Positions 5,465 through 53,984 of a stretch of DNA of 53,984 nucleotides are shown one piece after another. Origin of the DNA: Eubacteriales Family XIII. Incertae Sedis bacterium (GTDB lineage: Bacteria; Bacillota; Clostridia; Peptostreptococcales; Anaerovoracaceae); NCBI GenBank assembly GCA_031266025.1, contig JAISBV010000044.1:1-53984 (forward strand). Reading direction: 5' to 3'. The notes below the pieces were generated by a model. The model was not told where the DNA came from and made no database searches. It saw only the letters and a list, made by a program, of their open reading frames with translations. Numbering within the stretch: the first letter of the stretch is position 1; every line of letters begins with the position of its first letter. A program made the position numbers and the translations under genes.

Positions 5465-5842
5465 ATGAAAAATATAATGGTATGCGTAACAGGACAAAAA
5501 ACCTGTGATCGTCTGATCAAATACGGCAGAGATCTTTTGGACGGCGAGCAGGGAGAACTTCTCATTATACACGTCGCCCGCAGTCAATACAAATTTTTGG
5601 GCGGTACTGAGGACGGCGCGGCTCTCGATTACCTGTACGAGAAGGCAAAAGAATACGGCGCCGGACTGACGGTGCTCAAATCCGATGATGTTCTCGAAAC
5701 GCTTATCGCGCAGGCGCGAAAAAACCAAGTCGATATTGTGGTGATCGGCGAATCGAGAGAAGGATGCGCCCCGTCAAACATGGTTGCAAAACTAAAAGAA
5801 CAGTTGGCGGACGACGCCGAGCTGCTAATAATCCCCGCATAA
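5465..5842 (+). CDS. UspA-like universal stress protein
   Basis: 125 aa; MKNIMVCVTGQKTCDRLIKYGRDLLDG...VDIVVIGESREG; resembles the USP domain of KdpD. Confidence 0.7.
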   Translation: MKNIMVCVTGQKTCDRLIKYGRDLLDGEQGELLIIHVARSQYKFLGGTEDGAALDYLYEKAKEYGAGLTVLKSDDVLETLIAQARKNQVDIVVIGESREGCAPSNMVAKLKEQLADDAELLIIPA

Positions 5843-34914: not shown

Positions 34915-36435
34915 TCAACCTCCACAAAACTGAATCAAAAATTTATCAAAACGCATGATCTTATCTATATCAATAATTACTTCATGCACCAATTGCTTGT
35001 ATATATCTTTAAAATATTGCTCCGAAAAAATGACAAGCAGATCAAAATCATAATCGCGTAAACCTTCCGGACTGACAATCGGTATCCCGTTAAAATCTGT
35101 ATCCCATACGGATGCGTTGTTATCACTGAGCGCGATTATCTCAAAACTTTCGCTGCGTAAAACGGCCGTTTCATTCCAATAGTATTTTAACACCTTGCCA
35201 ACGGCGAAAATCGCAATCCTCTGTTTCACGGCCGTTTTTTCTGAAATCAGACTGCCAACCATATCATTCGCGACACGTTCTCCGCACTTACCGTCCGTGT
35301 AAGGAACACATTTTCGAAACGCTTTTGCACGCTCCTCTTTTTTTGGGTCGTCGCCGTTTTGAAACATTTCAATAAAGCGACACATATCATCGGCGCCTGT
35401 GCCTTGATAGAACGACTCGACCAGGGGTCTAATCGCCTCAGTCATTTCTTCAACATTGTCCGGATTGTACATGTACAAGATCGGAACGCCTGTAACGGGC
35501 GCTTCTATCATCAGCGCGCTGCGGTCAATGATAACCGCGTCGGCACGCAGTATAGCGGGCCGGTAATCCGATATCTCATATACATAAACATTTTCGGCTT
35601 CTCTAAGCAAATCAATAATACTGTCGGATTTTTCCTGCGATATTTGATCGACAAACTCACTCTGCCTTGCCAACATAATCGGATGCGGCATAAAAACAAA
35701 AAACAACTCTTGAATTTGTTCAATCGTACGCGCAAACTTCAAATATTCGTCAAGGTTCGGCGTGACAAGTGTGTTATCCTCTGTTTTTGGAAAATGCATT
35801 TTCCAAAGTATAACTTTTCGGTTACCGATGAGTCTTTCAATTTCTTTCGAAAAAGGCTTCATATTTTGACGGCTGTACGCGTCAAATCTTGGAAGTCCCG
35901 TTACCCTTATGGCAAATCTGTTCGGACAATACTCTTTGTAAATTTCGGCCATCTTTTCGGAAATAACATATATTCTCCAAGCATTCAATACAGCAAATGT
36001 GTAAAAGTGACTGACGCGCGAAAGCGGCGTATCGGATATTTCTATCCCATAAGGAATATAAACCACGCGCGTTCCCATTGAAACGAAACGATACGACAGA
36101 GCCTCAGCGACCCTGTGCGATGTATAAGGCGATTGCAACATGACAATATGCGGCTTGTACCCTGAAAAATCGAACTCGCCGAACCTTGTATAACGTAACG
36201 CGTTTTCGATAAGAAACTCCTCTGCTCCGGCCATCTGAACCTTGCTGAAAGCGAGTTCGTCAAGCAAAACTAACCGGACGTCGTAGCGTTCGTCTTCGAC
36301 GCAAGCGCGGTACACGCTCTCCCAACTCGGCCAGAACGACGGTATCTGAAACAGAAAAACTATGCGTATCTTCTCGCCCTCCGTAAGCGATGTATTGTTA
36401 AATTCACCTTCAATCATTAACAATATTCTCTGCAA
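34915..36435 (-). CDS. CDP-glycerol glycerophosphotransferase-like protein with C-terminal Rossmann-like module
   Basis: VYIPYGIEISDTP; LWKMHFPKTEDN; FVFMPHPIM; AVIIDRSALMIEAPVTGVPILYM; C-terminal QRIAIFAVGKVLKYYW. Confidence 0.7.
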   Translation of the reverse strand: MQRILLMIEGEFNNTSLTEGEKIRIVFLFQIPSFWPSWESVYRACVEDERYDVRLVLLDELAFSKVQMAGAEEFLIENALRYTRFGEFDFSGYKPHIVMLQSPYTSHRVAEALSYRFVSMGTRVVYIPYGIEISDTPLSRVSHFYTFAVLNAWRIYVISEKMAEIYKEYCPNRFAIRVTGLPRFDAYSRQNMKPFSKEIERLIGNRKVILWKMHFPKTEDNTLVTPNLDEYLKFARTIEQIQELFFVFMPHPIMLARQSEFVDQISQEKSDSIIDLLREAENVYVYEISDYRPAILRADAVIIDRSALMIEAPVTGVPILYMYNPDNVEEMTEAIRPLVESFYQGTGADDMCRFIEMFQNGDDPKKEERAKAFRKCVPYTDGKCGERVANDMVGSLISEKTAVKQRIAIFAVGKVLKYYWNETAVLRSESFEIIALSDNNASVWDTDFNGIPIVSPEGLRDYDFDLLVIFSEQYFKDIYKQLVHEVIIDIDKIMRFDKFLIQFCGG

Positions 36436-36447
36436 TGCAAAAAGTCA

Positions 36448-37527
36448 TCATAAACACTCTCTTCCTTCTAAATAATTGCCGCGAACGATATTATACCTTT
36501 CGGCATATTTGTGTTTCATCCAAAATAATTCCGGGTGAATCACGTCATATATAGGCTGCTGCGCGTATTCCGCAAAAATATTACCGCATGTCTTGTCGTT
36601 AACATAAAAAAACAAATTCTGTCTGTAATAAATATCAATCTTGGTATTGTTCCATATAAACGGCCTTATGCAATCGACAGCCGTATACCCTTGTTTCGTG
36701 AATAATTGCGCCCAATAGCTCTGAACCTGTTCGTTGACGTGATTATCTCCGCCCTGACCCGGAACGGCGGCGGAAAAGGCGACAATATCGCTCAAATTGC
36801 AAAGCGTTTCAACAAATTGTAAAGCGTATATCTCGTCCAAATGCTCTGCGACTTCAAAACTGACAGCTAAGTCATAACGCTTGTCGCTTTTAAACGGAGT
36901 CGTCAAATCGTGGGCAATAAAATATTCCGAATCAAGCTGAAGTCTGTCCCTATCAACGTATTCGCCGTCAACGCCGTATACGTCTTTTACTCCGTATTCT
37001 TTAAATTTTCGAGCAATCAACCCGATGCCGCAACCTATGTCAATAACAGACTGCGGTCGCACAAATGACAATATGACTTTCAGTAATTCATCCGCACTTG
37101 CGGTCTGTGTAATAAGATTCTTTTCATAAAAGGCTGCGTCATAAGGATTATTCGGTTTATGCTTTTCCGCATACCAATCCCAACAAATCATCTTGAATCT
37201 TTCCTCCGGGAAATACAAATCATTGATCGCGAACGGCATACTGGGAACGATTTCATTGTAATACCTGCAATCGACAGCCATTATAATCCCTGTTTTTTGC
37301 GGTTTATAATAATTGACTTTGAATTCCTTTATGCTTTTGATTATTTTACCTGTTTCGGTATGATCGGGATCGCGTACGGAAACAATATAACCGCGAACAG
37401 ATGCGCCATACTCGCCAAGAATTTCGCTGATCGCCTTCGCGTAGGCGCCCGCGCCAAACAACCATATTTCCTCATAAAAGGAAAGCCACTTCTTAAAATG
37501 TGATGAAATCACAAAAACCTCTTTCAT
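36448..37527 (-). CDS. SAM-dependent methyltransferase with N-terminal Rossmann-like module
   Basis: EEIWLFGAGAYAKAISEIL; SVIDIGCGIGLIARKFKEYGVKDVYGVDGEYVDRD; DLAVSFEVAEHLDE. Confidence 0.8.
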   Translation of the reverse strand: MKEVFVISSHFKKWLSFYEEIWLFGAGAYAKAISEILGEYGASVRGYIVSVRDPDHTETGKIIKSIKEFKVNYYKPQKTGIIMAVDCRYYNEIVPSMPFAINDLYFPEERFKMICWDWYAEKHKPNNPYDAAFYEKNLITQTASADELLKVILSFVRPQSVIDIGCGIGLIARKFKEYGVKDVYGVDGEYVDRDRLQLDSEYFIAHDLTTPFKSDKRYDLAVSFEVAEHLDEIYALQFVETLCNLSDIVAFSAAVPGQGGDNHVNEQVQSYWAQLFTKQGYTAVDCIRPFIWNNTKIDIYYRQNLFFYVNDKTCGNIFAEYAQQPIYDVIHPELFWMKHKYAERYNIVRGNYLEGRECL

Positions 37528-38583
37528 TTAATCAACTTTAACATATTGTTCTTGCCACGCAAGCATTGTGTTATATTCCCGCAAGGAACGAATAAATTTT
37601 AAGTAATCCTCCGCCGCCGGGGCGGTCACAGCAACGGCGGAGATATAATCGCAAAAGCGATTTTCGTCGGCGGCACGGAGCAGATACGGTTCCATTTTAA
37701 GATTTTGTATCATTCTCCATACGATTTCACAAAGCCTTTCAACGGGCATATTTTTCAACTTCAAATTGAACAGCGTCGAACTTACGATCCTCACCGCCGC
37801 AAACGCCCGCACATCGTCGGCGGCAGCACCGCCGCTATAATCAAGATACAGACTCCAGATTATTTCCGCGCTCCGCTCAATATCCGAAATATCGGACGTA
37901 TAGACGCGGGAATCGCGGCGGTCATAATAGACGTAATACGATTCGCCGGTTGTTCCGACGCGCTCGGCCGCCGTATAGCAGGCAAAATTGAAAACAAAAT
38001 CATCGGAATAGGCTTCGGGGTGAAATCGCAACCTGTTCCTTTCCAAAAATTCGCGCCTGTAAAACTTCCCCCAAGCGGTTATTGTACGGCCGTTGACCGC
38101 AAGCTTATACATATAGTCACGTTCGTTCTGCGTATTGACCGCGAACAGCTCATTTGAAAACTTCACATAATCGTCCATATCCTCGACGCGCAGGTCGCCC
38201 AAGTCCTTTTTGCCGCCGCAACACAGTATGTCGAGATTTTGCTTCGACGCTTGCCCGCACATCGCGCGGAACATCCCGGGCAGTATATAATCGTCGGCGT
38301 CAACGAATGTAATGAATTCGCCTCTTGCTTCGTCAAGTCCGCGATTGCGGGCGGCGGGGAATCCCGTACCGTCCTCACCGAGAATCCTGACGCGCCTGTC
38401 CGCGTCGGCAAAGTTTTTGCAGATTTCGACGCTCCTGTCGGTTGACCGCAACTCTACTGTGAGAAGAAGCTCAAAATCCTCAAAATCCTGCGCAATCACA
38501 GAATTGAGACACCTCTCTATATACTGCTCCACATTGTACACAAGCACTATTACGCTGAGCGCCGGAGAATCATTATTCGTCAC
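37528..38583 (-). CDS. Family 2 glycosyltransferase
   Basis: LSVIVLVYNVEQYIERCLNSVIAQDFEDFELLLT; ARGEFITFVDADDYILPGM. Confidence 0.92.
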   Translation of the reverse strand: MTNNDSPALSVIVLVYNVEQYIERCLNSVIAQDFEDFELLLTVELRSTDRSVEICKNFADADRRVRILGEDGTGFPAARNRGLDEARGEFITFVDADDYILPGMFRAMCGQASKQNLDILCCGGKKDLGDLRVEDMDDYVKFSNELFAVNTQNERDYMYKLAVNGRTITAWGKFYRREFLERNRLRFHPEAYSDDFVFNFACYTAAERVGTTGESYYVYYDRRDSRVYTSDISDIERSAEIIWSLYLDYSGGAAADDVRAFAAVRIVSSTLFNLKLKNMPVERLCEIVWRMIQNLKMEPYLLRAADENRFCDYISAVAVTAPAAEDYLKFIRSLREYNTMLAWQEQYVKVD

Positions 38584-39605
38584 GCAAACACCTCGCTCAT
38601 ATCCGGCAGCGCCGTATTGTCAACGCAGGCGCGGAGCATACCGCGCACCGTATTCTCATATTCGGCGGAAAAACCGTGCAAACTGCAGTATCTGCCGATA
38701 TAATCGCGGTCAAGGCATATAGCCAAATATTTTTGAACGGAACCGTCAACTGTAAACATAGATATGGCGACCATAATTTCCGCTTCGGGTAATCCCGCCT
38801 GCCAAGCGTAGAATAAAATGCTTTTGACCCGCGTATAAGCGTATATCGCCAGAATAGGTTCTGTTATATTTTCACTGTGCCCGCTCAATATGTCTGCGGC
38901 GTTGCGAAATGTCTCCAAAAAAAGCAAACCGTGATTTGTCCGGCGAATATGCTTGCGCATAGCGGAGTCGTCGTATTGAACATAATCGTACAGCGATCTT
39001 CCTATGTGGATTATATTGGGTGTTTTAAATAACAGTGACAAATTAAACAAATTATCCTCACTGTAGCGCGTATCCGGAAACCTTGCGGCGTTACGAGTCA
39101 AAAACCCACGTCTGTACAATCTTGCCCATACATAGTTATTGGGCTTGGGAGCGGCGCCGAACCGATAATAGTAATCCGTTACGCCATCCCCCAACGGTCG
39201 GAATTCACCGGTTGACAGGCGGGCAAAATTCTCAATTATCCGCTCCGGATAGATCATGTCAAAATCGCAAACGGCGATATCGGCGCCGGCTTGCACAGCC
39301 AAGCCGACCATTGCAGCAAGCATGTCGGGCTTCATTCTGTCGTCGGAATCGCAAAACGCGATATAATCGCCTATCGCGTTCTCAATACCCTTATTTCGCG
39401 CCAACGCCGGGGAGCAGACGGGGGCGTCTATCACCCTTGCCGTCAAATTTTCATATGAACGCAAGATATCTACTGTTCCGTCAGTCGAACCGGAGTCAAC
39501 GACCAACAGTTCAAAATCCTTAAATGACTGCGCCGATAAACCGTCAAGCGACGTTTTTATGTACTTTGCGGCGTTTAACGTCGGCATTATAACACTGAGT
39601 TTCAT
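38580..39605 (-). CDS. Family 2 glycosyltransferase
   Basis: LSVIMPTLNAAKYIKTSLDGLSAQSFKDFELLVVDSGSTDGT; GDYIAFCDSDDRMKPDML. Confidence 0.92.
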   Translation of the reverse strand: MKLSVIMPTLNAAKYIKTSLDGLSAQSFKDFELLVVDSGSTDGTVDILRSYENLTARVIDAPVCSPALARNKGIENAIGDYIAFCDSDDRMKPDMLAAMVGLAVQAGADIAVCDFDMIYPERIIENFARLSTGEFRPLGDGVTDYYYRFGAAPKPNNYVWARLYRRGFLTRNAARFPDTRYSEDNLFNLSLLFKTPNIIHIGRSLYDYVQYDDSAMRKHIRRTNHGLLFLETFRNAADILSGHSENITEPILAIYAYTRVKSILFYAWQAGLPEAEIMVAISMFTVDGSVQKYLAICLDRDYIGRYCSLHGFSAEYENTVRGMLRACVDNTALPDMSEVFA

Positions 39606-40594
39606 ACCTGTTCCGATTGAAAGCCTGAAATCGCCCCGGCGTTACGCGAAATTATCCGGCCGACTTCCTTGCGAAGATATATCATATTATTTATTGTCTT
39701 GTGGAAAGGAATATAGCCCTTCCGATCAAGCATAGTATTCATTTGCTCAATATCCCGGTCACTCGCTTCCGTGCAAATTACTGTCGGAGCGCCGCTCTCG
39801 GAAAAATCACAACCGGCCAGAACCTCATAGTCAAAACCTTCGATATCTATTTGTAAGAACTCCGGCCATGTGCCGTTTGCATATTGTTCGATTATGTCGA
39901 ACAATGTCAGTACGGGTATTTTCCTTATGCCGGCAAATCGTTTACCTCCGTTTTGATATGCATTTGCAACAGTTTCCGAGAATGTGTTAAAAGCATTGTT
40001 TTCAAACATGTAGTATGGCAAAATGCCGTTTTGAACCCCGACGCCTACGTTAACGACAATATTATCTGCGCGCTCTTTGCGCAGAGCGTCGATTATATCA
40101 GGGTTTGCTTCAACATCTATTCCCCTGCATCCGTTCAGATAAAGATATGCCGTATTGCTGCCTTTGTAAGGATCGTTTGCGCCAACATCTATATAACTGA
40201 ATTTTTCCTTCCCCAACAACTTAAAAATCATAGCAACCGCGACATCTTCACCGCTTGACGCGAACGGCTTTAACCCAAGGCGAAAAGCCGAAACCACTTT
40301 CGTCATAGGGATTTTCATGGCTTTCAAATCGAGCCAAATGGAATCTGCATACCAATATGACGCGATCACAACACAATCAAAGTCCTTATCAAGCAGTTTT
40401 TCGGGCGGAAACACGTCGATATCCAATGATCCGCATATTGATTCACAATTCCTGTCAACAATATAAAGAATTTCACAATAATCTTTTTCTCTGATTTGTC
40501 GGATGTATTCTCGCCCCACCAATCCGCCGCCGTACAGCACGATCCGGCTTCCTTTTTTGATTTTTTCAAATGGGAATAAATAGTTATAATTCAT
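39602..40594 (-). CDS. FkbM-family methyltransferase with N-terminal Rossmann-like module
   Basis: SRIVLYGGGLVGREYIRQI; YIDVGANDPYKGSNTAYLYLNGCRGIDVEANPDII; LQIDIEGFDYEVL. Confidence 0.85.
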   Translation of the reverse strand: MNYNYLFPFEKIKKGSRIVLYGGGLVGREYIRQIREKDYCEILYIVDRNCESICGSLDIDVFPPEKLLDKDFDCVVIASYWYADSIWLDLKAMKIPMTKVVSAFRLGLKPFASSGEDVAVAMIFKLLGKEKFSYIDVGANDPYKGSNTAYLYLNGCRGIDVEANPDIIDALRKERADNIVVNVGVGVQNGILPYYMFENNAFNTFSETVANAYQNGGKRFAGIRKIPVLTLFDIIEQYANGTWPEFLQIDIEGFDYEVLAGCDFSESGAPTVICTEASDRDIEQMNTMLDRKGYIPFHKTINNMIYLRKEVGRIISRNAGAISGFQSEQV

Positions 40595-40758
40595 CGTTTC
40601 GTCTCTTACGCTCTGCTGTTATTACGCAAACGGGTTCAATACCCGTTCGCAAGCTCCGGGCACGCGTACCCCGTAGCTTGCTACGGTTCCTTATTCATAA
40701 CGTAGGGTATATTGAACCCACTTCAAATATTTCCTATCGCATCAAACTGCCCATCTCT

Positions 40759-42078
40759 CTAATACCCCGTAGTCTTGCTGCAGGGCAGTTTATTTTGATT
40801 TTTCGTGATTATAGTTTTCACCGCCGATATTAAATCATCGCAGACGCGGTCGCTTTCTGCCGGATACTTTCTGTCGGCTGTTTTTTCTCCGGTTCTCACA
40901 CCTATAGTCGCGCACCCCGCCGTTTTACCCGCCGCGATGTCCGCTGTGCTGTCGCCTATCATATAAGAACGGCTTAAATCTATGTTGTACCGTTTTGCGG
41001 CTTCAATTAATAGGCCCGGCTTCGGTTTGCGGCAGTCGCACTCGATTTTATACTCAGGCGCTTCCTCCGGGTAACCTTTGTCAGGGTGGTGCGGGCAATA
41101 CAGCAAGTCGTCCAAGTACGCTCCTTCGCAGCCGAGCAGTGTGTCAAGCCGCGCGTGAATCGCGTCAAGCTCGGAAAGCGTCGTCATCCCTCTCGCCACA
41201 ACGGGTTGATTCGTTACGCAGATCGCGAGAAACGGCGAAGCATTGAGCATCGTGATCGCTTCGGCGGCGCCCGGTATTAACTCAATTTGCTCCGGCGAGT
41301 CTATGAGCCCGCGCAGTTCGTTGATCGTTCCGTCCCGGTCAAGAAACACCGCACGCTGATTGTTTTCTAAGCTTCGAGCCGCTGCGGCGCCGCTCCTTAT
41401 ATCCTTTTCCGCAGCGGCAAGGCGCTCCGGCGTTCCCATATCCTTTACGTACTCTGTCGAACGGTAAGCGCAGACAGTTCCTGTCGGCAGAGCGGGCAAA
41501 ATCAGATCATGATCCAAATCCCGTCTAATCGCCCTTCCCGTGGGCAAAGCGTCTCCGCTGAAAACATAAAGTCCCGCATTGACCAAGTTGCGCAACTCTC
41601 CGCGATTTTTATCTTTTTTGGATTTCCACGCCGTCATGCGATTTTCCTCGTCCGCTGCAACGATATCGCTGTCATACGGGTGACTGTTGGGGTGCGTAAA
41701 CAGGCTTATTTCGGCTCGTTTTTCTCTGTGAAAGCAGATAAAACGATTAAAATCAACTTCAAAGTATACATCCCCGAAAAGTATCAGCGTGTCCTCGCGC
41801 GGCAATAGCGAAAGCGCGCCGCCCGTGCCGAGAGGTTCATCCTCTGCGATGTATTCTATTTTCGCGCCGAACGCTTCTCCGTCGCCGAAATGCGTTTGGA
41901 TCACATCCGCCCTGTAACCAAGGATTAAGCATATGTCCGTTATTCCCTGTCGTGTAAGTGACTCAATCTGATATTGTAACAGGGGTTTACCGAGTATTGG
42001 AATCATCGGCTTTGGCAAACCGGGATAAAGGCTCTTGATTCGCGTTCCCTTGCCGCCCGCAAGTATCACCGCCCTCAT
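40759..42078 (-). CDS. Bifunctional heptose-1-phosphate guanylyltransferase / heptose-1,7-bisphosphate phosphatase (HddC-GmhB fusion)
   Basis: MRAVILAGGKGTRIKSLYPGLPKPMIPILGKPLLQYQIE...EDEPLGTGGAL; then RAVFLDRDGTINELRG (HAD), YCPHHPDKGYPEEAPEYKIECDCRKPKPGLL, MIGDSTADI. Confidence 0.88.
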   Translation of the reverse strand: MRAVILAGGKGTRIKSLYPGLPKPMIPILGKPLLQYQIESLTRQGITDICLILGYRADVIQTHFGDGEAFGAKIEYIAEDEPLGTGGALSLLPREDTLILFGDVYFEVDFNRFICFHREKRAEISLFTHPNSHPYDSDIVAADEENRMTAWKSKKDKNRGELRNLVNAGLYVFSGDALPTGRAIRRDLDHDLILPALPTGTVCAYRSTEYVKDMGTPERLAAAEKDIRSGAAAARSLENNQRAVFLDRDGTINELRGLIDSPEQIELIPGAAEAITMLNASPFLAICVTNQPVVARGMTTLSELDAIHARLDTLLGCEGAYLDDLLYCPHHPDKGYPEEAPEYKIECDCRKPKPGLLIEAAKRYNIDLSRSYMIGDSTADIAAGKTAGCATIGVRTGEKTADRKYPAESDRVCDDLISAVKTIITKNQNKLPCSKTTGY

Positions 42079-42998
42079 AAGATACCGGTTCCATTTTTGT
42101 GAATTTGTATTACGATATCGTTATTCTGATGCGTATCATCCATACAAAAATATCTAACTTTATGATTCCCTTTATTTAAATTCAAAAATTCATTTACGGC
42201 CGGAACTACTCCAAAAAATATTCCCCAGGCCCAGTTAAACATGGCATAATCATTAAACTGCACGAATCCGCCGTCTTTCAACTTTTTCTCCAACACAGCT
42301 ATGTCATTTTTGACGCTTTCATAATCATGCCCCGCATCTACATAAGCATAATCAAAATAGTCGTCCGGAAACTCGGAAAGGACGTCCCATGAAAAGCCTT
42401 GTCGCGTTTCCAAAAGCCCGCTCGCAATTTCCCGGCTGAATCTGCGTTCATACCATTTTTGATGAGGCATGTTGTCGCGCTTAAAATCACATCTTCCCAT
42501 AAGTTCGACATAGGGATCATCCCGGGAAAAACAGTCGACTGCAAAAAACATTTTGGGCTTCATCTCACGCAATATCATCTCTGTGAAGTCGCCGTAAGCC
42601 ACGCCCACTTCAACACATACAGCATTATCCGGCATAAACTTAAGCGAGGATTCTCTGCCGATTAACATTCGAGCTTCGGCCAAAACATCCCCCGTTAAAA
42701 ACATGTTTTTATCCGGTTCCAACAACTCTATTTTCCCCGGAGCCATTCCCGCATCGGTAAGCATGCTCGCTATTTCATCAAAGTGCAACGGCGCGGCAAT
42801 ATATACTTTATCCAAGATCGATTCATTTTGTATAATGATATCAGGTTCTACCACAGTCGCTGAGTGAAACAGTCTTTTGGCCAACATTCGTCTGTCCGGA
42901 TTCGAATCGCTTATATATAAAGCATTTTTCAGAATGCCGACAAAACCCAATTGATGCCCCATGAAATACCGACCGAGTCCGTAAATTGCGTATTTCAA
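42075..42998 (-). CDS. Class I SAM methyltransferase (TylF-like) with N-terminal Rossmann-like module
   Basis: KYAIYGLGRYFMGHQLG; CVEVGVAYGDFTEMIL; FDYAYVDAGHDYESVKNDI. TTG start at 42998 with GGAG upstream is proposed; the ORF itself opens at 43139. Confidence 0.75.
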   Translation of the reverse strand: MKYAIYGLGRYFMGHQLGFVGILKNALYISDSNPDRRMLAKRLFHSATVVEPDIIIQNESILDKVYIAAPLHFDEIASMLTDAGMAPGKIELLEPDKNMFLTGDVLAEARMLIGRESSLKFMPDNAVCVEVGVAYGDFTEMILREMKPKMFFAVDCFSRDDPYVELMGRCDFKRDNMPHQKWYERRFSREIASGLLETRQGFSWDVLSEFPDDYFDYAYVDAGHDYESVKNDIAVLEKKLKDGGFVQFNDYAMFNWAWGIFFGVVPAVNEFLNLNKGNHKVRYFCMDDTHQNNDIVIQIHKNGTGIL

Positions 42999-43017
42999 AC
43001 CATGCTCCTTCGCCGCC

Positions 43018-43983
43018 TTACATCGACCCTCTCGCCGCAAGCCGCACAGCCTCATCTGACGTATGCTTTGCGATCCAACCAAACGCGTGTATTTTAGACA
43101 GATCGTATTGAAACCTTGGCACATCTCCGAGCCAGCCAACGGCGCCGCCCGTAAACTTATATTCCACGTCTTTCAGGCCAATTTCCTCGCATACGATATC
43201 CGCTATGCGCCTGACAGTCGTCGAGCTGTCGACTCCGACGTTGAAAATATCAAACCCTTCGTTATACTTCATCAACAGCATCGCCTCGACCAAGTCCTCA
43301 ACGTATATATACGGCTTGTCCTGCCGGCCGTCGCCGAGTATTTCAAGCTCCTTCGAGTTTTTTTTAAGCTTCGCGATAAAGTCAAATATCGCGCCGTGCG
43401 TCAGTCTTTCTCCCACCACGTTCGGAAAACGGATAATATTCGCGGCCAGACCGTTCATAGCCGCGTACGCCGAGATAAACGCCTCAGAAGCCAATTTTGC
43501 CGCGCCGTAGTAGGAAATAGGACGCAGGTCGCCCGCATCCTCTCTCAACAGTTCCCGTTTGTCGCCGTACACTGCGGAAGTGGACGAAAACAACAATTCC
43601 TTAACGTTGTGCTTCCGCATTGCGTTCAGCAGCGACACCGTGGTCAGAAACGTATCTCGGTAGTCGATTGCCGGATCGGCGCCGCTTTTTTGAATATCGG
43701 AGTTTGCCGCAAGGTGATATACCCGCCCGAAATCATGCCGCTCAAACAAAGCGTTCACCTTGCCCTCGTCGCATATGTCAAATTCGCAAAACTCGAAATT
43801 CGGATTGTCAAGACAATGCCCAATCATATTCCCGCCGCCAAGGCCAAGCTTATCGACGCACACCACGTGTTCGCCGCGCTTGAGCAGAGCATCAATCAAG
43901 TGGCTGCCTATAAAACCCGCGCCTCCGGCCACCAAGGTTTTCGTTTTTTTTTCGGTCACTTCGATTCTCACTGTCACACTCAT
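43018..43983 (-). CDS. NAD-dependent sugar epimerase/dehydratase
   Basis: TLVAGGAGFIGSHLIDALLKRGEHVVCVDKL; SSTSAVYGDK; YYGAAKLASE. Confidence 0.92.
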   Translation of the reverse strand: MSVTVRIEVTEKKTKTLVAGGAGFIGSHLIDALLKRGEHVVCVDKLGLGGGNMIGHCLDNPNFEFCEFDICDEGKVNALFERHDFGRVYHLAANSDIQKSGADPAIDYRDTFLTTVSLLNAMRKHNVKELLFSSTSAVYGDKRELLREDAGDLRPISYYGAAKLASEAFISAYAAMNGLAANIIRFPNVVGERLTHGAIFDFIAKLKKNSKELEILGDGRQDKPYIYVEDLVEAMLLMKYNEGFDIFNVGVDSSTTVRRIADIVCEEIGLKDVEYKFTGGAVGWLGDVPRFQYDLSKIHAFGWIAKHTSDEAVRLAARGSM

Positions 43984-45092
43984 TTAACTCTCAAGGCAAG
44001 ATTTGAATTTCCGGAAGCGGAAAATCCTTCGCGTATAACATCAAATCCGGCTCGCGTGCATATTTCCAACAACTCTGCGTGGCTGAATTCATATGTATGC
44101 CCGCGATGAACAAATGGCAGCGATGTTCCGGGGGAAGGCATATCCTCCCAAGAAACATACGAAGCCAATTTACTCCAATGAGGGCAACTGAGGTAAAATA
44201 CTCCTCCCTCGCATAGGTGCTTGCCAATCTTGATCAGTGTCGGAACCGGATTGTAGCTAAAGTGCTCAATGACTTCCGTCATGACAATCAAGTCGTACTT
44301 TCCGATGTTTGTTAAATCATCTCGTTCAACGTCGGCGACAAATACCGTATCAGCCATATTTGCCAAGCAATCATTTTCATGCGGACTCACGTCGACTATA
44401 TCAAGGCTTACATTTGCTATTCCTTTTATTGCGGCTGAAAATAAGCCTATACCCGGGCCGATATCAAGTATTGAAACGTTTGTGTTTCCTGTAATATCGG
44501 CAAACACCCACTCATAAATTTTATTCCACCAACAAACGCCTTTGGTATAATGCCAAAATAATTCGCTGATTTTATAATCGTCTTCGATATAATTGTTTAC
44601 AAGTTTATTCATTGATTGCAATAAATTATCTCTTAACACAGTTCCTAAAGGCATTCTCTCAAAATCAGGCCATCGAATCTCATAGAGAAAACTGTATTTT
44701 ATAACATCATTAAGCAATAATTGTCGCACAATGGCATTTCTGTTTGGCTCACTTGTTACGGGAATAATAAAGCGAAGATCCCTTTGATTAATGATTTCCC
44801 ATGTATTTACAACGCTGTAGCCAAAAATATTTCTTCCCTTCATACTTGAATCGCTGTTACATAATATCTGTGGCTTTACCCTGATCGACCCCAACGCGGA
44901 CAAAGCATCCGACAATTTGCCGACGGCAAACAGGCCCGTCTTTTCTGAGCTTAATGCGTTGAAGTCATTCCGGTTTTCGGAAATTATTAAGTATTGATAC
45001 GCGTTTTCTTCCGACAAAGCCACGTGTCCGATATAATTGATGAACACCTTACTCTCTCCGTTTCTTGTGCTAACTTCCCTTAGGCTTATCAC
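43980..45092 (-). CDS. Class I SAM methyltransferase with N-terminal nucleotide-binding-like module
   Basis: NVSILDIGPGIGLFSAAIKG; DLIVMTEVIEHFSYNPVPTL; N-terminal TGLFAVGKLSDALSAL. Confidence 0.78.
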   Translation of the reverse strand: MISLREVSTRNGESKVFINYIGHVALSEENAYQYLIISENRNDFNALSSEKTGLFAVGKLSDALSALGSIRVKPQILCNSDSSMKGRNIFGYSVVNTWEIINQRDLRFIIPVTSEPNRNAIVRQLLLNDVIKYSFLYEIRWPDFERMPLGTVLRDNLLQSMNKLVNNYIEDDYKISELFWHYTKGVCWWNKIYEWVFADITGNTNVSILDIGPGIGLFSAAIKGIANVSLDIVDVSPHENDCLANMADTVFVADVERDDLTNIGKYDLIVMTEVIEHFSYNPVPTLIKIGKHLCEGGVFYLSCPHWSKLASYVSWEDMPSPGTSLPFVHRGHTYEFSHAELLEICTRAGFDVIREGFSASGNSNLALRVK

Positions 45093-46065
45093 CTACGTAT
45101 ATTACAGTTGAACCGCTGCGGCTGAAACCGAAATCCATATATGACAAATCGAGCAAAACGTTTTTTACAGCGTCGTGCCTATGCTCGGGCACATAGAACA
45201 GCAAAAACCCGCCTCCGCCCGCGCCGAGCAGTTTGCCGCCCGTCGCGCCCGCGGCAAGCGCCGACTCATATGCTTTGTCGATGATCGGGTTCGTGATTCC
45301 GCTCGCCAGTTTGCGTTTCTGTTCCCATCCCGCGTGCAGTATCGGGCCGAGCGCGTCTATATTGTCATTTATAAGCTCCCTGTGCAGTTCGTCCGTCAGC
45401 TTGAGGATTTCAAGCTGAGCTCTTTCCTTGTCGCTGTCGGAGCTTATATTCTTGCCCTGCTCCGAAAGTATCCGGGACGCGGAACGCAGATCGCCCGTAT
45501 AGAACATGAGCAGGTTGTGCTCCATGCGATCTATGGCAGGAGGCGACATTATAACAGGCTCGACCGCGACGCTGCCGTCTTTGTTAAACCGATAGACGTT
45601 CAAGCCGCCATAGGCCGCCGCGTACTGGTCTTGTTTGCCGATCGGCTCTCCGAGTATATCTATTTCCGTGCGGCAGGCTTCGGTCGCAAGCAAATCAGCC
45701 GAAACATATTTGCCCATATAGGCGTAGAGCGTATGCAAAAGTCCCACGGTGAACGAGCTTGACGAACCGAGACCCGTGCCTGCGGGAACATCGGCAGTGC
45801 TCGTGATCTCCACGCCGTTTATCCCAAAGCGTTCAAGCAGCACGCGAAAAATGGGATGTTCAAGCTCGGACGGATTGTTCACGGGTTCGTTCTTTGAATA
45901 TTTGCAGATCAGTCTGTTCCGATAAAAGTACGGGTGAACGGACAGGTAGACATATCTGTTCAAGCCCGCCGACAGCACAGCGCCGCCGTGTTTCTTGTAG
46001 AACGCGGGCAAATCGCTGCCGCCGCCGCAAAAGCTGACGCGGGTCGGGGTTCTGACTATAATCAC
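45070..46065 (-). CDS. hddA: D-glycero-D-manno-heptose-7-phosphate kinase (GHMP family)
   Basis: IIVRTPTRVSFCGGGSDLPAFYKKHGGAVLSAGLNRYVYLSVHPYF; VPAGTGLGSSSSFTVGLLHTL; LLGAGGGGFLLFYV. Confidence 0.9.
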   Translation of the reverse strand: MIIVRTPTRVSFCGGGSDLPAFYKKHGGAVLSAGLNRYVYLSVHPYFYRNRLICKYSKNEPVNNPSELEHPIFRVLLERFGINGVEITSTADVPAGTGLGSSSSFTVGLLHTLYAYMGKYVSADLLATEACRTEIDILGEPIGKQDQYAAAYGGLNVYRFNKDGSVAVEPVIMSPPAIDRMEHNLLMFYTGDLRSASRILSEQGKNISSDSDKERAQLEILKLTDELHRELINDNIDALGPILHAGWEQKRKLASGITNPIIDKAYESALAAGATGGKLLGAGGGGFLLFYVPEHRHDAVKNVLLDLSYMDFGFSRSGSTVIYVGDKPKGS

Positions 46066-46658
46066 GGTTCATTCCTTTTCATATGCTCTTTGCCGCAAAG
46101 CTCTTTATAGAAGACCGCCATCATCAAATGATCGAAAATCATATGGATATCTTCTGTTACCTGCATACTCATTACGGGCGCGTGCAGCGAAATATCAACC
46201 ATACTTGCCAATTTACCGCCGTCGTGGCCCGTCAGGCCTATCGTCGTCGCGCCGACGGATTTCGCGAGCTCAATTGCCTTAAGGACATTCGGCGAATTAC
46301 CGCTGCCTGAAATTCCGATTACAAGATCGTTATCCGCAACCCTTCCCCGAAGCTGAAACTCAAATACGGTCTCATAGCCGATGTCGTTGGCTATAGCCAT
46401 AACTGTGGCGATATTGTCGTTCAGGCACACAAATCGAAACGGTTGCTCCAAATATTCGGAAAGACCCTTATTAAAGTCATTGACAAAATGAGAAGCCGTG
46501 CTTGCGCTGCCGCCGTTGCCCATTATGTAGATTGTCGCGTCGCGCCGGCGCGCGGACTCGAGACTGTTCATAACCTTGTTGATCGCTTCGATATCCAAAT
46601 CGGACAGAACGGATATTTCAAGCGTCAAATAGTCACCGATTGCCTTTGTGTAATCCAT
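46062..46658 (-). CDS. gmhA: Sedoheptulose-7-phosphate isomerase (SIS domain)
   Basis: IYIMGNGGSASTASHFVNDFNKGL; DLVIGISGSGNSPNVLKAIELAKSVGATTIGLTGHDGG. Confidence 0.9.
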   Translation of the reverse strand: MDYTKAIGDYLTLEISVLSDLDIEAINKVMNSLESARRRDATIYIMGNGGSASTASHFVNDFNKGLSEYLEQPFRFVCLNDNIATVMAIANDIGYETVFEFQLRGRVADNDLVIGISGSGNSPNVLKAIELAKSVGATTIGLTGHDGGKLASMVDISLHAPVMSMQVTEDIHMIFDHLMMAVFYKELCGKEHMKRNEP

Positions 46659-49297: not shown

Positions 49298-50428
49298 CTA
49301 AGTAATATCGGCAATAAATGTATAGACTGTTGCGCCTCCCGAAAGTGTAAACGTAATCGTGGCGGTAGTCGCTGCGTTCCAACCTCCTTTTATACCTACC
49401 TTACTGCCTGTGTAATCAAATATGAATAAGTTGCCAACTTGTGCCGGAGTCATAGCGACTCCTTCGTATTTCACAGATGTCACAGTTTGGCCGGCAAAGT
49501 TGAAATCTGTCGACTTGCTTACATTTGTGCCTTTGGCGACCGTAAGCGTGCCGCCGTCCAAGGGATCGACCGTTCCTATAAAGCCGACGGGCACTATCAG
49601 TGACAGCGGCTTAAATGAAGCGTCCGGCTCAACCAAGGCCGGGATGACGGAATCAAAGGACGGCGAAGAGGTATCGTCCTTGGCAAAAGTGAATACAGCC
49701 TGCACGGAAACTGTGCTTGGATTGGATGCCGCTGAGAAATGAGACCAGTCGGCGTTCTTGTTCACATAACCGCCGATCAGAATACCTGTGCCGTGTCCCG
49801 TACCTGCGTCCGGCGTCGCCGTATAGACGCCGGAATTGTTGGCGACGGTATATTCAGCGGAATCAAGGACAAAGGTCAATGTCTGGTTTGCATCAACAGC
49901 CGTGACCACATAACCTTTGTCAGCGGGAATGAAAACATTGCTGGCAGTAATGTCGACGCCGGATGGAGCTGCGTACAGCAGCACATTATTGGCCGTACCG
50001 ATGTTCACCGAGTCGATGGTGGCCTTGTCCGAACCCGACCAGGAAATGAACTGCGCCGTAGAAATATTGGGGGCTGTACCAGCATTGGTAATTCCCGTAA
50101 GTTTGATGCTCACCTTTACATTTTTGGAACTGTTGTTAGTTACCAACGCCGGCGCGGAGGGAATGATACGACCGCCTTTCAAATCTGAAAGCGACACAGA
50201 CTTTGTGTCTTCAATCTCGGTAAGGCCCTGCGGATCAAGCGTGAAATTGAGGTTTGCACTCGTGGGAAGGCTGACGGCATATATATCCAAGTCGAGATAA
50301 TTGACGTCGCCGGCGCCCGTGACGGTCGTATTGCCGGATGAAGTTCCGGTCTCGGCAAAGACCGAGGGGATCGTGCCGAGAACCAAAAGTGCGGCCACGG
50401 CTGTTGCGATAACTTTTCTTTTCATCAT
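49298..50428 (-). CDS. Secreted surface-type protein with signal peptide
   Basis: MMKRKVIATAVAALLVLGTIPSVFAETG signal peptide; Thr/Ser/Val-rich beta-like ectodomain. Confidence 0.8.
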   Translation of the reverse strand: MMKRKVIATAVAALLVLGTIPSVFAETGTSSGNTTVTGAGDVNYLDLDIYAVSLPTSANLNFTLDPQGLTEIEDTKSVSLSDLKGGRIIPSAPALVTNNSSKNVKVSIKLTGITNAGTAPNISTAQFISWSGSDKATIDSVNIGTANNVLLYAAPSGVDITASNVFIPADKGYVVTAVDANQTLTFVLDSAEYTVANNSGVYTATPDAGTGHGTGILIGGYVNKNADWSHFSAASNPSTVSVQAVFTFAKDDTSSPSFDSVIPALVEPDASFKPLSLIVPVGFIGTVDPLDGGTLTVAKGTNVSKSTDFNFAGQTVTSVKYEGVAMTPAQVGNLFIFDYTGSKVGIKGGWNAATTATITFTLSGGATVYTFIADIT

Positions 50429-50491
50429 TGTAGGACTCCTTTCTTTTTGTTTTCGCACGGCGCGGGCCTTTGTTTTGCCGTTTCGCCGCGA

Positions 50492-50520
50492 AAAATAATT
50501 GGAGGTGAAATATTTGTCAA
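50492..50520 (-). promoter_or_regulatory. Putative promoter of the secreted-protein gene
   Basis: Minus strand TTGACA - 17 nt - TATTTT upstream of ATG 50428. Confidence 0.45.
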
Positions 50521-50526
50521 TCCACA

Positions 50527-51054
50527 TCATGAAAGGATATGGAGTGTGACCGATACGGAAACGTTGCTCAATTCATTGCCGTCGTCGTCCAACAAGCGAT
50601 ATGTTGCTATGGCGGAGTGTTCGCCCGCGCCCGGATTTCTGTCAAGCGCGAAGTTTGTCAATTGGCTGCCCACAGGAATATCAGGCGATGTATATATTAT
50701 TTCATTCGTTTCCTCAAGCGAAAGCGTGAAATATACTGTACGTGTATTGTTTTCCGAGTTCGCCACATAGGCGTTTTCGGACGGGGTATCCCAAGTTTCG
50801 AACGTCCATTCCACATTCATGCGGGTTTCGTAATAGCCGTCCGCCACGGGTTCGTTGAGTTTACTGCGGATAGATTCTATATTTTCGATTGTGGCCACCG
50901 TGCCCACGCCGCCGATCCGCGTTTCTGTGGGTGCGGGCTCGGGCGCGTTCAGGAGACGCACGATCACGATGATCAATACCGTTATGACGACGAGCGCCAA
51001 AACTACGGCGATCACAACAAATTTATTTATACTGCCTTTTGTCTCCGCTTCCAT
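50527..51054 (-). CDS. Single-pass membrane-anchored surface protein
   Basis: KFVVIAVVLALVVITVLIIVIVRLL TM segment then extracellular domain. Confidence 0.65.
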   Translation of the reverse strand: MEAETKGSINKFVVIAVVLALVVITVLIIVIVRLLNAPEPAPTETRIGGVGTVATIENIESIRSKLNEPVADGYYETRMNVEWTFETWDTPSENAYVANSENNTRTVYFTLSLEETNEIIYTSPDIPVGSQLTNFALDRNPGAGEHSAIATYRLLDDDGNELSNVSVSVTLHILS

Positions 51055-51071: not shown

Positions 51072-52037
51072 TTACAGTTTCTCGGCGCCGTCATCCTTGC
51101 GCGCGTCCTGTGATTGCTCCGAAGTCGTTTCTTCCGCCGCGCTTTCCGATCCGGGTGTTATGTCTTCGGCATTCACCGTATTCGATTGCTCATTCTTCTC
51201 AGCGGATTCCAAAACGGGCGGATCGTCATCTGTAGGCGAATTGACATCCGTCTCCTCCGATTCGGGTGACGTATTGTCCGCAGACACACTGTCTGATATA
51301 TAGGTGGAGTCTTCTTGGCCGTCCGGCGCGTCTTCGACGATTTCTTCTGTATTTTCTTCTGCGGCAGACACGTCTTCATCAATGGGATAGACTACGGGTA
51401 CAAGTGCGGAAATAATATCCGACGCCGGAATATCTATTTCAAAACTGAGAAAAATCATTATTGAGGTTTCTTCCCATTTTATATCGCCGTACTCATTCAC
51501 GGCGCCCTCAAAACGAAAGGTTCCCGAAGCGCCGCCGTCAAGAGCAAAGACAAAATTCTCGCCGCCCGGTTCTGCGCCGATAACTGTATGCGCGGATTCC
51601 CCGCCCGCGTCGCAGATCATATCAATATATATATTATTGCCTTCCTCGGGCAAGTTTTCGTCCGAACGCACAGAAAACGAGTCTTCGTTCGCGATATTCA
51701 CGTAAGCGTCGCGTATCGTGACGTTCACGGGGAAGTCACTATTGTTTGCAACCCTAAATTCGCTCGAAAGAACCACGCCTGTTCCGGTATCGCTGAAAAT
51801 CAGGATATCGAAAGGTACCTCATCCGGCAAGGCCACGTCAATAATGCCGTTCTGCGCGCCCAATACCGCCGACGTCGGCGACTCTTCCGGCGCAATCTGC
51901 GGCGGTGTATCGGGCATTGAAACAGCGCCGCCCGACGTACTCTCGTCTGCGTTTTCCGCAGCGCTCGCGTTTGCGGCAAACAGGCATCCGAAAAGCAAGA
52001 GGGCTATGGGAACGAACACTCGCATATATTTCTTCAT
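51072..52037 (-). CDS. Secreted protein with acidic low-complexity C-terminus
   Basis: MKKYMRVFVPIALLLFGCLFAANASA signal peptide; C-terminal Glu/Asp/Ser/Thr-rich tail. Confidence 0.7.
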   Translation of the reverse strand: MKKYMRVFVPIALLLFGCLFAANASAAENADESTSGGAVSMPDTPPQIAPEESPTSAVLGAQNGIIDVALPDEVPFDILIFSDTGTGVVLSSEFRVANNSDFPVNVTIRDAYVNIANEDSFSVRSDENLPEEGNNIYIDMICDAGGESAHTVIGAEPGGENFVFALDGGASGTFRFEGAVNEYGDIKWEETSIMIFLSFEIDIPASDIISALVPVVYPIDEDVSAAEENTEEIVEDAPDGQEDSTYISDSVSADNTSPESEETDVNSPTDDDPPVLESAEKNEQSNTVNAEDITPGSESAAEETTSEQSQDARKDDGAEKL

Positions 52038-52139: not shown

Positions 52140-52159
52140 TGTGAAACATAATATAATAT
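52140..52159 (-). other. Putative guide segment adjacent to the omegaRNA-like scaffold
   Basis: Minus strand ATATTATATTATGTTTCACA immediately after the TCAA scaffold end. Confidence 0.45.
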
Positions 52160-52298
52160 TTGACGTCCCTCGCGGCTCTGCCGCTTGGGTTCCCGCTTCT
52201 TCGAGCGCCGCGGCTCTTGCCGCCTTGCACGCTCTCCGCGGGCGTTTCGGAAAGCGTAGTTTGTACGCGCTTCCCTGTTCCGGCCCGTCCGGCCGTAC
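52160..52298 (-). ncRNA. IS605/TnpB-type omegaRNA-like scaffold
   Basis: Minus strand GTACGGCCGGACGGGCCGG...CGCTTTCCGAAACGCCCGCGGAGAGCG...GGCGGCAAGAGCCGC...GAAGCGGGAACCCAAGCGGCAGAGCCGCGAGGGACGTCAA; stem-loops and TCAA end resemble IS200/IS605 right ends. Confidence 0.65.
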
Positions 52299-52305
52299 AT
52301 TTTAT

Positions 52306-53322
52306 TTAAGAGGCCAAATCCGGCGCGCGCTCCGAGGAGACGTCCGTAAGGACAAGCTCCTTCCCGTACCGGTCGCATTTGTAACGCAGCTTGCCGAGAA
52401 GATAACCGAGACCCGCGTCTGCAAGTTCCTTCGCGAAGCGTTTGTCCGTCATGTGCTCCGATGGCTTTGTGTCCCGAATGTATATCGCGTCGTATTCGCG
52501 CACGAGCCGCGTAGAGAGTTTGTTCAGGCAGTCGCTTCTTCGGTTCGATACCTTTTCGTACGCGCGGGCCAGTTTTATCCTTGCTTTCTCCCGGTTGTTG
52601 CTGCCCTTTGGTTTTCGGGACAGCCTTCGCGAAAGACGCGCTATCTTCTTCTCCGATTTTTCAAAGTATCTCGGGTTTTCGCTTGTGAAGCCGTCCGAGG
52701 TCGTTACAAGGGGCGTTATGCCGAGCTTAATCTCTGCGGTCTTGCCCGTCTTGGGCAAGGGACGGGGGTTCACGTCCGTGCAGCATACGGATACGAAGTA
52801 TTTGCCGCTCGGGCTTTGGAATACGCTTGCGGAGAGTATGCGCCCTTCGGGGCGTCTCGATACCCTGCAGCGCACCCTGCCCAATTTCGGCAATTTGATT
52901 GCCCTGTCTTCTATCGCTATGTTTTCGCGCTTTATGTTCTTTCTGCTCGTATATGAGCTTCTGCCCTTTTTGCTCCTGTACTTCGGAAAACCGGGAGGGC
53001 CGCCGTTTTTCGCCCTGCGAAAGAAGGCTCTGTACGCGCGGTCAAGTTCTTTCAGGGCCACAAGAAGCGCGTTCGAGTCCGCTTCCGCGAGCCACTCCGT
53101 GCCCGCGGCTTTCTTCAGCCGCGCGAGATCGCGGCAGCACTCGTTCAGACCGAGGAGACGGTGTTCGTTCTTGTAGGCGTCTATCCTCATGGCGAGGTAG
53201 TGATTGTATACGAAGCGGCAGCAGCCGAAGCTCTTTTGTATGAGAAGCTCCTGCTCCCGTGTGGGATATATGCGAAAATTGTAACGTTTCTCCACTGTCC
53301 GCGCCCAACCTTTCGTTCCCAT
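52306..53322 (-). CDS. TnpB-like protein, C-terminally truncated and predicted nuclease-dead (TldR-like candidate)
   Basis: VEKRYNFRIYPTREQELLIQKSFGCCRFVYNHYL; FPKYRSK; AEIKLGITPLVTTSDG (usual GIDLG is IKLG); YDAIYIRDTKPSEHM (usual IEdL is IRDT); stops after VLTDVSSERAPDLAS, before the zinc finger and DRD motif. Confidence 0.8.
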   Translation of the reverse strand: MGTKGWARTVEKRYNFRIYPTREQELLIQKSFGCCRFVYNHYLAMRIDAYKNEHRLLGLNECCRDLARLKKAAGTEWLAEADSNALLVALKELDRAYRAFFRRAKNGGPPGFPKYRSKKGRSSYTSRKNIKRENIAIEDRAIKLPKLGRVRCRVSRRPEGRILSASVFQSPSGKYFVSVCCTDVNPRPLPKTGKTAEIKLGITPLVTTSDGFTSENPRYFEKSEKKIARLSRRLSRKPKGSNNREKARIKLARAYEKVSNRRSDCLNKLSTRLVREYDAIYIRDTKPSEHMTDKRFAKELADAGLGYLLGKLRYKCDRYGKELVLTDVSSERAPDLAS

Positions 53323-53325
53323 GGC

Positions 53326-53353
53326 ATGTAACATTTTTTATAAAATGTTACAT
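53326..53353. repeat. Perfect 12-bp-stem palindrome, copy 1
   Basis: ATGTAACATTTT-TTAT-AAAATGTTACAT. Confidence 0.85.
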
Positions 53354-53380
53354 GCCCGGAAAACGATTGATTTTCCAACA

Positions 53381-53404
53381 AAAAAAGAACGCCCTTGGGC
53401 GTTC
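53381..53404 (-). terminator. Rho-independent terminator
   Basis: Minus strand GAACGCCC-AA-GGGCGTTC followed by TTTTTT. Confidence 0.75.
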
Positions 53405-53463
53405 CTGCGGGCGGCGCGCGGTCGGTTCGGCTCCGCGGCCTTTGAAATTGCAACAAAAAAACC

Positions 53464-53491
53464 ATGTAACATTTTATAAAAAATGTTACAT
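53464..53491. repeat. Perfect 12-bp-stem palindrome, copy 2 (inverted relative to copy 1)
   Basis: ATGTAACATTTT-ATAA-AAAATGTTACAT. Confidence 0.85.
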
Positions 53492-53843
53492 GGGCAAACG
53501 CAAATCATTATTTTATTATACTATGTATTGTCCGGTTTGTAAAGTTGCCGGCGAAATTGATCTTGATTCCCGAAATCGGCTTTATTTCACCGATTTTACC
53601 TATACTATCGGGCAAGACACGCCATGGGAAACAAGTATCCTTTTCCCTTTATCGGCCGAAACGCCCCTGACTTTATATCGCTTTGAATTTAAATTACGTT
53701 CAAAATAATGGTGAATTCGGCGGTGTAAAATAGTTCTGGATTAAGTAAAAGGGCGTTGTCCACAAAAAAATAAGGAAGAAGGCCCCTTTCCGTGATAAGA
53801 TGTAATCTTCAAGAAAAACAATCTTTGAACGGAGGAGACCTTC

Positions 53844-53984
53844 ATGGAAAACATTATACTACAAACAGTGACCGAAGCGACAAAAAAGATTCTCGAATAT
53901 CACCGGGAAAACGGACTTTCCTCTCTGCACCGAATGGCGGAAGACATTAAGGCGATCAGCGACGAGATGGCGATGAAAATGCTC
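53844..53984 (+). CDS. N-terminus of a probable ISLre2/UPF0236-type transposase (truncated by window edge)
   Basis: GGAGGAG upstream of ATG; MENIILQTVTEATKKILEYHRENGLSSLHRMAEDIKAISDEMAMKML. Confidence 0.4.
   Translation, partial: MENIILQTVTEATKKILEYHRENGLSSLHRMAEDIKAISDEMAMKML

What the first reader, a model, noticed from the sequence alone, without database searches (positions are those of the whole stretch)
52140..52305. Intact omegaRNA-like scaffold and candidate guide after the truncated TnpB
Seen: after the early stop, the minus strand has serial stem-loops (GGCCGGacgGGCCGG; CGCTTTCC...GGAGAGCG; GGCGGCaagaGCCGC; GCGGCagaGCCGC inside CCC...GGG) ending GGGACGTCAA, then ATATTATATTATGTTTCACA. 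Known: IS200/IS605 omegaRNAs cover the element's right end, which often terminates in TCAA, with the guide from flanking DNA. Inference: the coding C-terminus was deleted while the RNA scaffold was kept, as expected for TldR-gRNA systems. The guide contains ATTATA, the complement of a -10 box, so a promoter target is plausible. I found no convincing second match in this window by eye.
Basis: partly seen in the sequence, partly recalled or inferred. Interest (0 to 1): 0.85.

Follow-up and report, generated by a model that had tools for sequence, protein, structure and literature searches.

The report
Dead TnpB with conserved guide RNA
A Clostridia genome carries a transposon enzyme that has lost its DNA-cutting residues but kept its guide RNA, inherited with relatives as one old lineage next to surface-polysaccharide genes, so it is probably an RNA-guided gene switch, although the gene it switches has not been identified.

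Summary
Window 52160-52298(-) is a genuine omegaRNA scaffold: it aligns with scaffolds beside catalytically intact TnpBs, and 12 of 20 tested pairs show compensatory changes (0/500 shuffles). It follows a 342-aa TnpB lacking the zinc-finger/RuvC-III end.

The TldR reading is strengthened. RuvC-I D is K and RuvC-II E is R. Three full-length relatives (53-68% identical) lack all three catalytic residues, while 54 other homologues keep D-E-D. The four dead proteins form one clade (100/100) under purifying selection (dN/dS 0.11-0.20 where estimable). Inactivation was ancestral; the truncation is later and private to the window copy.

The first 13-16 nt after the scaffold are conserved and the sequence beyond is not. 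All four loci precede the same glycerophosphotransferase-like gene; the window copy heads a surface-polysaccharide cluster.

A promoter target is not supported: no window-guide match beats chance genome-wide. The best candidate is an ORF-internal site in a paralogous glycan gene of the Gracilibacteraceae relative (14/15 nt, 0/1000 shuffles). Most likely a TldR-type RNA-guided repressor with an unproven target.

The parts
52306..53334 (-). tldR-like gene: nuclease-dead, C-terminally truncated TnpB (342 aa from ATG at 53334; homologues suggest a GTG start at 53295, 329 aa)
   Evidence: Pfam OrfB_IS605 4e-22 and HTH_OrfB_IS605; NCBIfam guided_TnpB 1e-70; RuvC-I D to K, RuvC-II E to R, RuvC-III absent; AF2 model pLDDT 81, best PDB match ISDra2 TnpB 8exa TM 0.86
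52160..52298 (-). omegaRNA/gRNA scaffold (139 nt) ending GGGACGTCAA
   Evidence: covarying structure shared with scaffolds of intact TnpBs; covariance model 82 bits
52281..52295 (-). scaffold helix 1 (CGGCC/GGCCG hairpin)
   Evidence: 5 pairs, 3 with compensatory change, 100% paired
52192..52242 (-). scaffold helices 2-4 (52238-52242 with 52192-52196; 52229-52234 with 52203-52208; 52219-52222 with 52211-52214)
   Evidence: 15 pairs, 9 with compensatory change, 96-98% paired
52167..52189 (-). final scaffold hairpin CCC..GCGGCagaGCCGC..GGG
   Evidence: MFE fold; partly recovered by RNAalifold, alignment weak here
52140..52159 (-). guide segment ATATTATATTATGTTTCACA (first 16 nt 52144-52159)
   Evidence: directly follows the TCAA end; 10/13 identical to the G001 guide, P about 0.004 against flank 13-mers; similarity falls to background beyond nt 16
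53515..53543 (-). sigma-70-like promoter TTTACA-17-TATAAT reading towards tldR
   Evidence: 11/12 consensus match; kept in the second copy at the end of contig C37
53325..53492 (-). tldR leader: two 30-nt palindromes (53325-53354, 53463-53492) flanking a terminator-like hairpin (53385-53406)
   Evidence: same arrangement in C37 and in both G201 copies L025/L026
49298..52037 (-). three downstream genes (51072-52037, 50527-51054, 49298-50530); the first and third appear secreted, the second membrane-anchored; no family match
   Evidence: no hits above curated cut-offs in Pfam/NCBIfam; homologous genes in the same order after the dead TnpB in L026
46672..49218 (-). 848-aa glycerophosphotransferase-like gene; a homologue follows the dead TnpB in all four loci
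   Evidence: weak Glyphos_transf match, 8e-4, below cut-off; homologues in G001 and G201
34915..46658 (-). surface-polysaccharide gene cluster downstream of tldR (SIS, GHMP kinase, NTP transferase-HAD, epimerase, glycosyl-, methyl- and glycerophosphotransferases)
   Evidence: Pfam, ORFs

Best explanation
The locus is a TldR-type RNA-guided DNA-binding regulator. The dead TnpB binds the adjacent omegaRNA-like guide RNA. Together they should recognise double-stranded DNA that matches the 13-16 nt after the scaffold, without cutting it, and so block transcription. Shown here: dead active site, intact covarying scaffold, one old clade under purifying selection, conserved guide segment, and conserved linkage to a glycerophosphotransferase-like gene (in the window at the head of a surface-polysaccharide cluster). 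Inferred: RNA expression, complex formation, DNA binding and repression. The regulated gene is unknown. The leading candidate, seen only in the Gracilibacteraceae genome, is a site inside paralogous copies of that glycan gene. Whether the window copy still works after losing its zinc finger and RuvC-III is less certain than for its full-length relatives.
For: All RuvC catalytic residues are replaced in the full-length relatives and both remaining ones in the window, while 54 other homologues keep D-E-D. E to R is shared by all four. Monophyly 100/100. dN/dS 0.19 for L025/L026 and 0.12 for window/G001, the latter with saturated dS. Scaffold covariation with active-TnpB scaffolds. Guide conservation that stops at about 16 nt: G001/L025 11/13, no random pair as good in 20,000; window/G001 10/13, P about 0.004. 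Fold of ISDra2 TnpB. One scaffold per dead tnpB; the only other hit is a weak one near an unrelated TnpB in G001. In G201 the guide matches the glycan gene at 14/15 nt; none of 1000 shuffled guides does as well. Published TldRs use a 6-nt seed, and csrA-TldRs target ORFs of paralogous flagellins (PMC13418256).
Against: No target for the window guide in the 82%-complete assembly. Residues that contact the TAM in ISDra2 TnpB are mostly changed (PMC10097598), so the TAM cannot be predicted. The G201 candidate has a mismatch at guide position 3, inside the published seed, and also lies in the gene directly downstream of one of its own cassettes. Two other loci in G201 have equally good 1-mismatch matches. 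Only four members, all from MAGs. No expression data.
Confidence: 0.7

Rival explanations
1. The clade is a working RNA-guided regulator, but the window copy is a degenerating member: deletion of the zinc finger and RuvC-III broke it, and its scaffold and guide persist only because the event is recent.
For: The truncation is private to the window copy. Its guide differs from the others at positions 3-5, in the seed. No target was found.
Against: ORF and scaffold are otherwise intact; window/G001 dN/dS 0.12 is like the other pairs, though this averages over the time before truncation. The predicted fold of the remaining part matches TnpB, TM 0.86.
Confidence: 0.22
2. Ordinary decaying IS200/IS605 tnpB remnants; the 'guide' is just flanking DNA of an old insertion site.
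For: Catalytic residues lost; second copies and repeats at contig ends; the element derives from IS605-type TnpB.
Against: Purifying selection on dead proteins, long ORFs in all copies, shared replacement residues and monophyly. Guide conserved where dS is saturated. In G201 the cassette-free locus C73 lacks the guide at the junction.
Confidence: 0.06
3. The guide acts in cis as an autoregulator: it binds the tldR promoter or the adjacent operon rather than a distant gene.
For: The best window match of the guide (12/15) lies on the -10 region of the tldR promoter and is kept in C37. In L025 the 14/15 match is in the adjacent downstream gene.
Against: The promoter match is within chance (shuffle p 0.11 and 0.15). 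No such match upstream of tldR in G001, L025 or L026.
Confidence: 0.1
4. The dead protein-RNA complex works on mobile DNA rather than host genes, for example by occupying sites or RNAs of active TnpBs and blocking their homing.
For: A canonical-looking TnpB (with one in-frame TGA) and its scaffold exist in G001 (L004).
Against: Linkage is to host surface-glycan genes, not to IS elements; none of the own-guide searches pointed to an IS site.
Confidence: 0.05

Closest known systems
TldR (TnpB-like nuclease-dead repressor) with gRNA, flagellin-remodelling prophage type (PMC13418256)
   Same: TnpB with inactivated RuvC, adjacent omegaRNA-derived gRNA, linkage to a non-transposon surface-structure gene; repression by guide-matched DNA binding was demonstrated there
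   Different: Here chromosomal contigs of Clostridia, linked to surface-polysaccharide genes instead of fliC; target and function untested; window copy lacks zinc finger and RuvC-III
csrA-associated TldRs of Oscillibacter/Flavonifractor (PMC13418256)
   Same: Clostridia, several tldR loci per genome, guides matching ORFs of paralogous surface genes
   Different: No csrA, hin or fliC noticed next to these loci; associated genes are glycan genes. Phylogenetic relation to that clade not tested (no sequences on hand)
IS200/IS605 TnpB nucleases (ISDra2 TnpB, 8exa/8h1j; PMC10097598)
   Same: Fold (TM 0.86), domain order, scaffold helices, CAA end before the guide
   Different: Catalytic D191/E278/D361 equivalents lost; TAM-contact residues mostly changed; no transposase gene seen nearby
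UpxZ trans-locus inhibitors of Bacteroides capsule loci (e.g. PMC7315117)
   Same: Conceptually: a regulator at the head of a surface-polysaccharide locus that could silence sister loci
   Different: UpxZ is a protein inhibitor from another phylum; shared logic is only a hypothesis here

Membership tests
TldR | Homologue of TnpB | tested here: met
   Pfam, NCBIfam, PDB sequence and fold matches
TldR | RuvC catalytic residues lost | tested here: met
   K/R/absent in window; H/R/G and H/R/A in relatives; D-E-D in all 54 others where the site is covered
TldR | Guide RNA scaffold retained beside the gene | tested here: met
   Covarying scaffold in all four loci
TldR | Maintained by selection, domesticated rather than decaying | tested here: met
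   dN/dS 0.11-0.20 in the estimable pairs; guide conserved. For the truncated window form itself this is indirect
TldR | Linkage to non-transposon genes, no transposase | tested here: inconclusive
   Linkage met: same downstream gene in all four loci. Absence of tnpA judged from ORF lists only, not by a dedicated search
TldR | Guide matches a conserved genomic target with a TAM | tested here: inconclusive
   No target above chance for the window guide; a 14/15 ORF match only in G201
TldR | RNA-guided DNA binding and transcriptional repression | not testable with these tools
   Needs RIP-seq, ChIP-seq and reporter assays
IS200/IS605 TnpB nuclease | D-E-D RuvC active site | tested here: not met
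csrA-TldR clade | csrA and fliC/hag adjacent | tested here: inconclusive
   None noticed among neighbouring ORFs of the window, L003, L025 or L026, but a gene as short as csrA could escape the length cut-offs used and no dedicated search was made

The most novel reading that the evidence does not exclude
A separate TldR lineage that regulates surface-polysaccharide loci: each locus carries a dead TnpB and a guide copied from a conserved codon stretch of the glycan gene, so that a locus silences its paralogues by binding inside their coding sequence. This would be an RNA-guided counterpart of capsule trans-locus inhibition.
Probability: 0.2. Interest if true: 0.82.

Novelty: new variant of a known kind. 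Interest (0 to 1): 0.62.

Why it matters
TldRs were described as regulators of flagellin genes (and, from memory, of an ABC transporter locus). A lineage tied to surface-polysaccharide loci would show that dead TnpBs have been recruited to switch another major surface structure, one that affects phage sensitivity and host contact. The full-length relatives and their conserved guides make the idea directly testable in E. coli. The window copy also asks how much of the TnpB C-terminus an RNA-guided repressor can lose.

Tried and rejected
Rfam gathering-threshold scan: no match. Genome-wide guide searches in the window's own assembly: nothing beyond chance. Exact 13-mer at the start of a livG-like gene (C85) and near-matches upstream of an ssb-like gene (C19) and a gene on C70: looked at and not accepted, since a few AT-rich matches of this quality are expected and no matching site beside a corresponding gene was seen among the G001 matches examined. 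Guide as coding fragment of the glycan gene in the window genome and G001: not significant. C54 intergenic match upstream of a queG-like gene in G201: equally good by mismatch count but isolated, so left as chance. Phage, plasmid and IMG/VR searches: only canonical TnpBs at 48% identity or less, no further dead-clade members among those examined. Alignment-based viral scan failed twice on the server. AF2 model of the third downstream protein: pLDDT 37, discarded. Foundational TldR paper not held in the library.

Full report
What is there. The window is the whole of contig C36 of a 2.6-Mb, 162-contig, 82%-complete MAG. A same-genus genome (G001) is the record 'Clostridiales Family XIII bacterium Im510_bin97'. 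On the minus strand a TnpB ORF (52306-53334, 342 aa) is followed, 8 nt after its stop, by 139 nt of structured sequence (52298-52160) ending GGGACGTCAA and then ATATTATATTATGTTTCACA.

The scaffold is real. Aligned with scaffolds beside three dead homologues and five catalytically intact TnpBs, it shares four helices. Of the tested cells, 97.8% form standard pairs, 12 of 20 pairs carry changes on both sides, and none of 500 shuffles reaches either value; sliding the partners destroys the signal. RNAalifold finds the same helices. Intact-TnpB scaffolds of the same family end GGGAGCGTTCAA or GGGGAGTGTCAA in register. The published ISDra2 structure places the last scaffold nucleotides (C-3, A-2, A-1) in or next to a pseudoknot directly before the guide (PMC10097598). 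So the guide starts at 52159.

The protein is dead, and has been for a long time. RuvC-I reads IKLGI where active homologues read IDLGI, and RuvC-II reads YIRD where they read CIED. The zinc finger and RuvC-III are gone. Three relatives are full length and have lost all three residues: G001 (68% identical by search, 67% aligned; H, R, G) and L025/L026, two copies in a Gracilibacteraceae MAG (about 53%; H, R, A). In 54 other homologues D-E-D is kept wherever the site is covered. The four dead proteins form one clade with 100/100 support and share the R at RuvC-II, so inactivation most simply happened once, before the truncation seen in the window. Purifying selection continues: dN/dS is 0.19 for L025/L026 at dS 0.23, and 0.11-0.20 for the deeper pairs that could be estimated, where dS is saturated and the values are rough. 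AlphaFold2 (pLDDT 81) and Foldseek give ISDra2 TnpB (8exa), TM 0.86. Residues that contact the TAM in ISDra2 (Y52, S56, K76, F77, Q80, T123, N124) are mostly replaced, most of all in the window and G001, so the TAM cannot be carried over.

The guide is conserved. Guides read ATATTATATTATGTT (window), ATCCCATATTATGAA (G001) and ATCCCGTATTTTGTC (L025, L026). G001 and L025 agree at 11 of 13; no random pair of flank 13-mers did as well in 20,000 draws. Window and G001 agree at 10 of 13 (P about 0.004). Similarity falls to background after position 16. Synonymous sites between these genes are saturated, so neutral flank would not have stayed alike. Caveats: part of the shared ATCCC could pair with the GGGA before it, and the window differs at positions 3-5, in the published 6-nt seed (PMC13418256).

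Genomic setting. All four dead genes lie upstream of homologues of one glycerophosphotransferase-like gene (window 46672-49218), directly in G001 and L025, and after three other genes in the window and L026, in the same order. In the window this leads into about 12 kb of sugar-nucleotide, glycosyltransferase, methyltransferase and glycerophosphotransferase genes. In G201 (the Gracilibacteraceae MAG), two near-identical loci differ by the presence (C128) or absence (C73) of a roughly 1.86-kb tldR cassette. The cassette-free locus does not carry the guide at the junction. A second, contig-broken copy of the leader and first 36 codons sits at the end of C37 in the window's genome.

Target. For the window guide, 20 nt with up to 3 mismatches finds only itself, 13 nt with 1 mismatch gives 8 other places against 4 for the reversed control, and 15 nt with up to 2 mismatches gives 9 against 13. 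None stands out. For the L025/L026 guide in G201, 15 nt with 1 mismatch gives four places: the same codon stretch (YIPYFV) of the glycan gene in C73 and in C128, an intergenic site in C54 and a coding site in C117. Shuffled guides reach 14/15 in the G201 glycan-gene set 0 times in 1000. This test was made after the match had been noticed, the mismatch is at position 3, and the other two lineages' guides do not show significant matches in their own copies. It is a candidate, not a finding. ORF targeting of paralogous surface genes has a published precedent in csrA-TldRs (PMC13418256).

Judgement. By its features this is a TldR-gRNA cassette, with two features open (a confirmed target, absence of a transposase) and the functional feature untestable here. 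What looks new is the separate dead lineage tied to surface-polysaccharide genes; I could not check whether published TldR surveys already list it. The window copy's activity is less certain than that of its relatives because of its truncation.

Noticed in passing
window 53325-53354 and 53463-53492; L002 101-130, 240-269; L025 1232-1260, 1378-1406; L026 near 5797-5826, 5943-5971: Pairs of 29-30-nt palindromes (TGTAACATTTTnnnnAAAATGTTACA) about 110-117 nt apart, with a terminator-like hairpin between, lie upstream of tldR in two genera but not in G001. They look like an operator or attenuator of tldR; binding factor unknown.
   Followed up: partly
G000:C37 1-593 (L002): A second copy of the tldR leader and first 36 codons (95% identical) is cut by the contig end, beside feoA/feoB-like genes, so this genome probably has two tldR loci, one unassembled.
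   Followed up: partly
window 53520-53708 (+): Small ORF (MYCPVCKVAGEIDL...), divergent to tldR, with a CxxC motif, sits in the stretch duplicated between C36 and C37; no Pfam match.
   Followed up: no
window 53844-53984 (+): Open frame running off the contig end (MENIILQTVTEATKKILEYH...) that resembles, from memory, the start of an ISLre2-type transposase; no Pfam match for the 47 residues.
   Followed up: partly
G001:C61 13318-14202 (L004): A TnpB with intact-looking catalytic motifs, one in-frame TGA and a recognisable scaffold (R1 hit 35 bits) in the same genome as a dead homologue.
   Followed up: no
L003, about 45 nt downstream of the guide; window about 52110: A second short conserved block (TTTTGTnCCCATTnnGTATTA) lies downstream of the guide in G001 and the window, perhaps the promoter of the next gene.
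   Followed up: no
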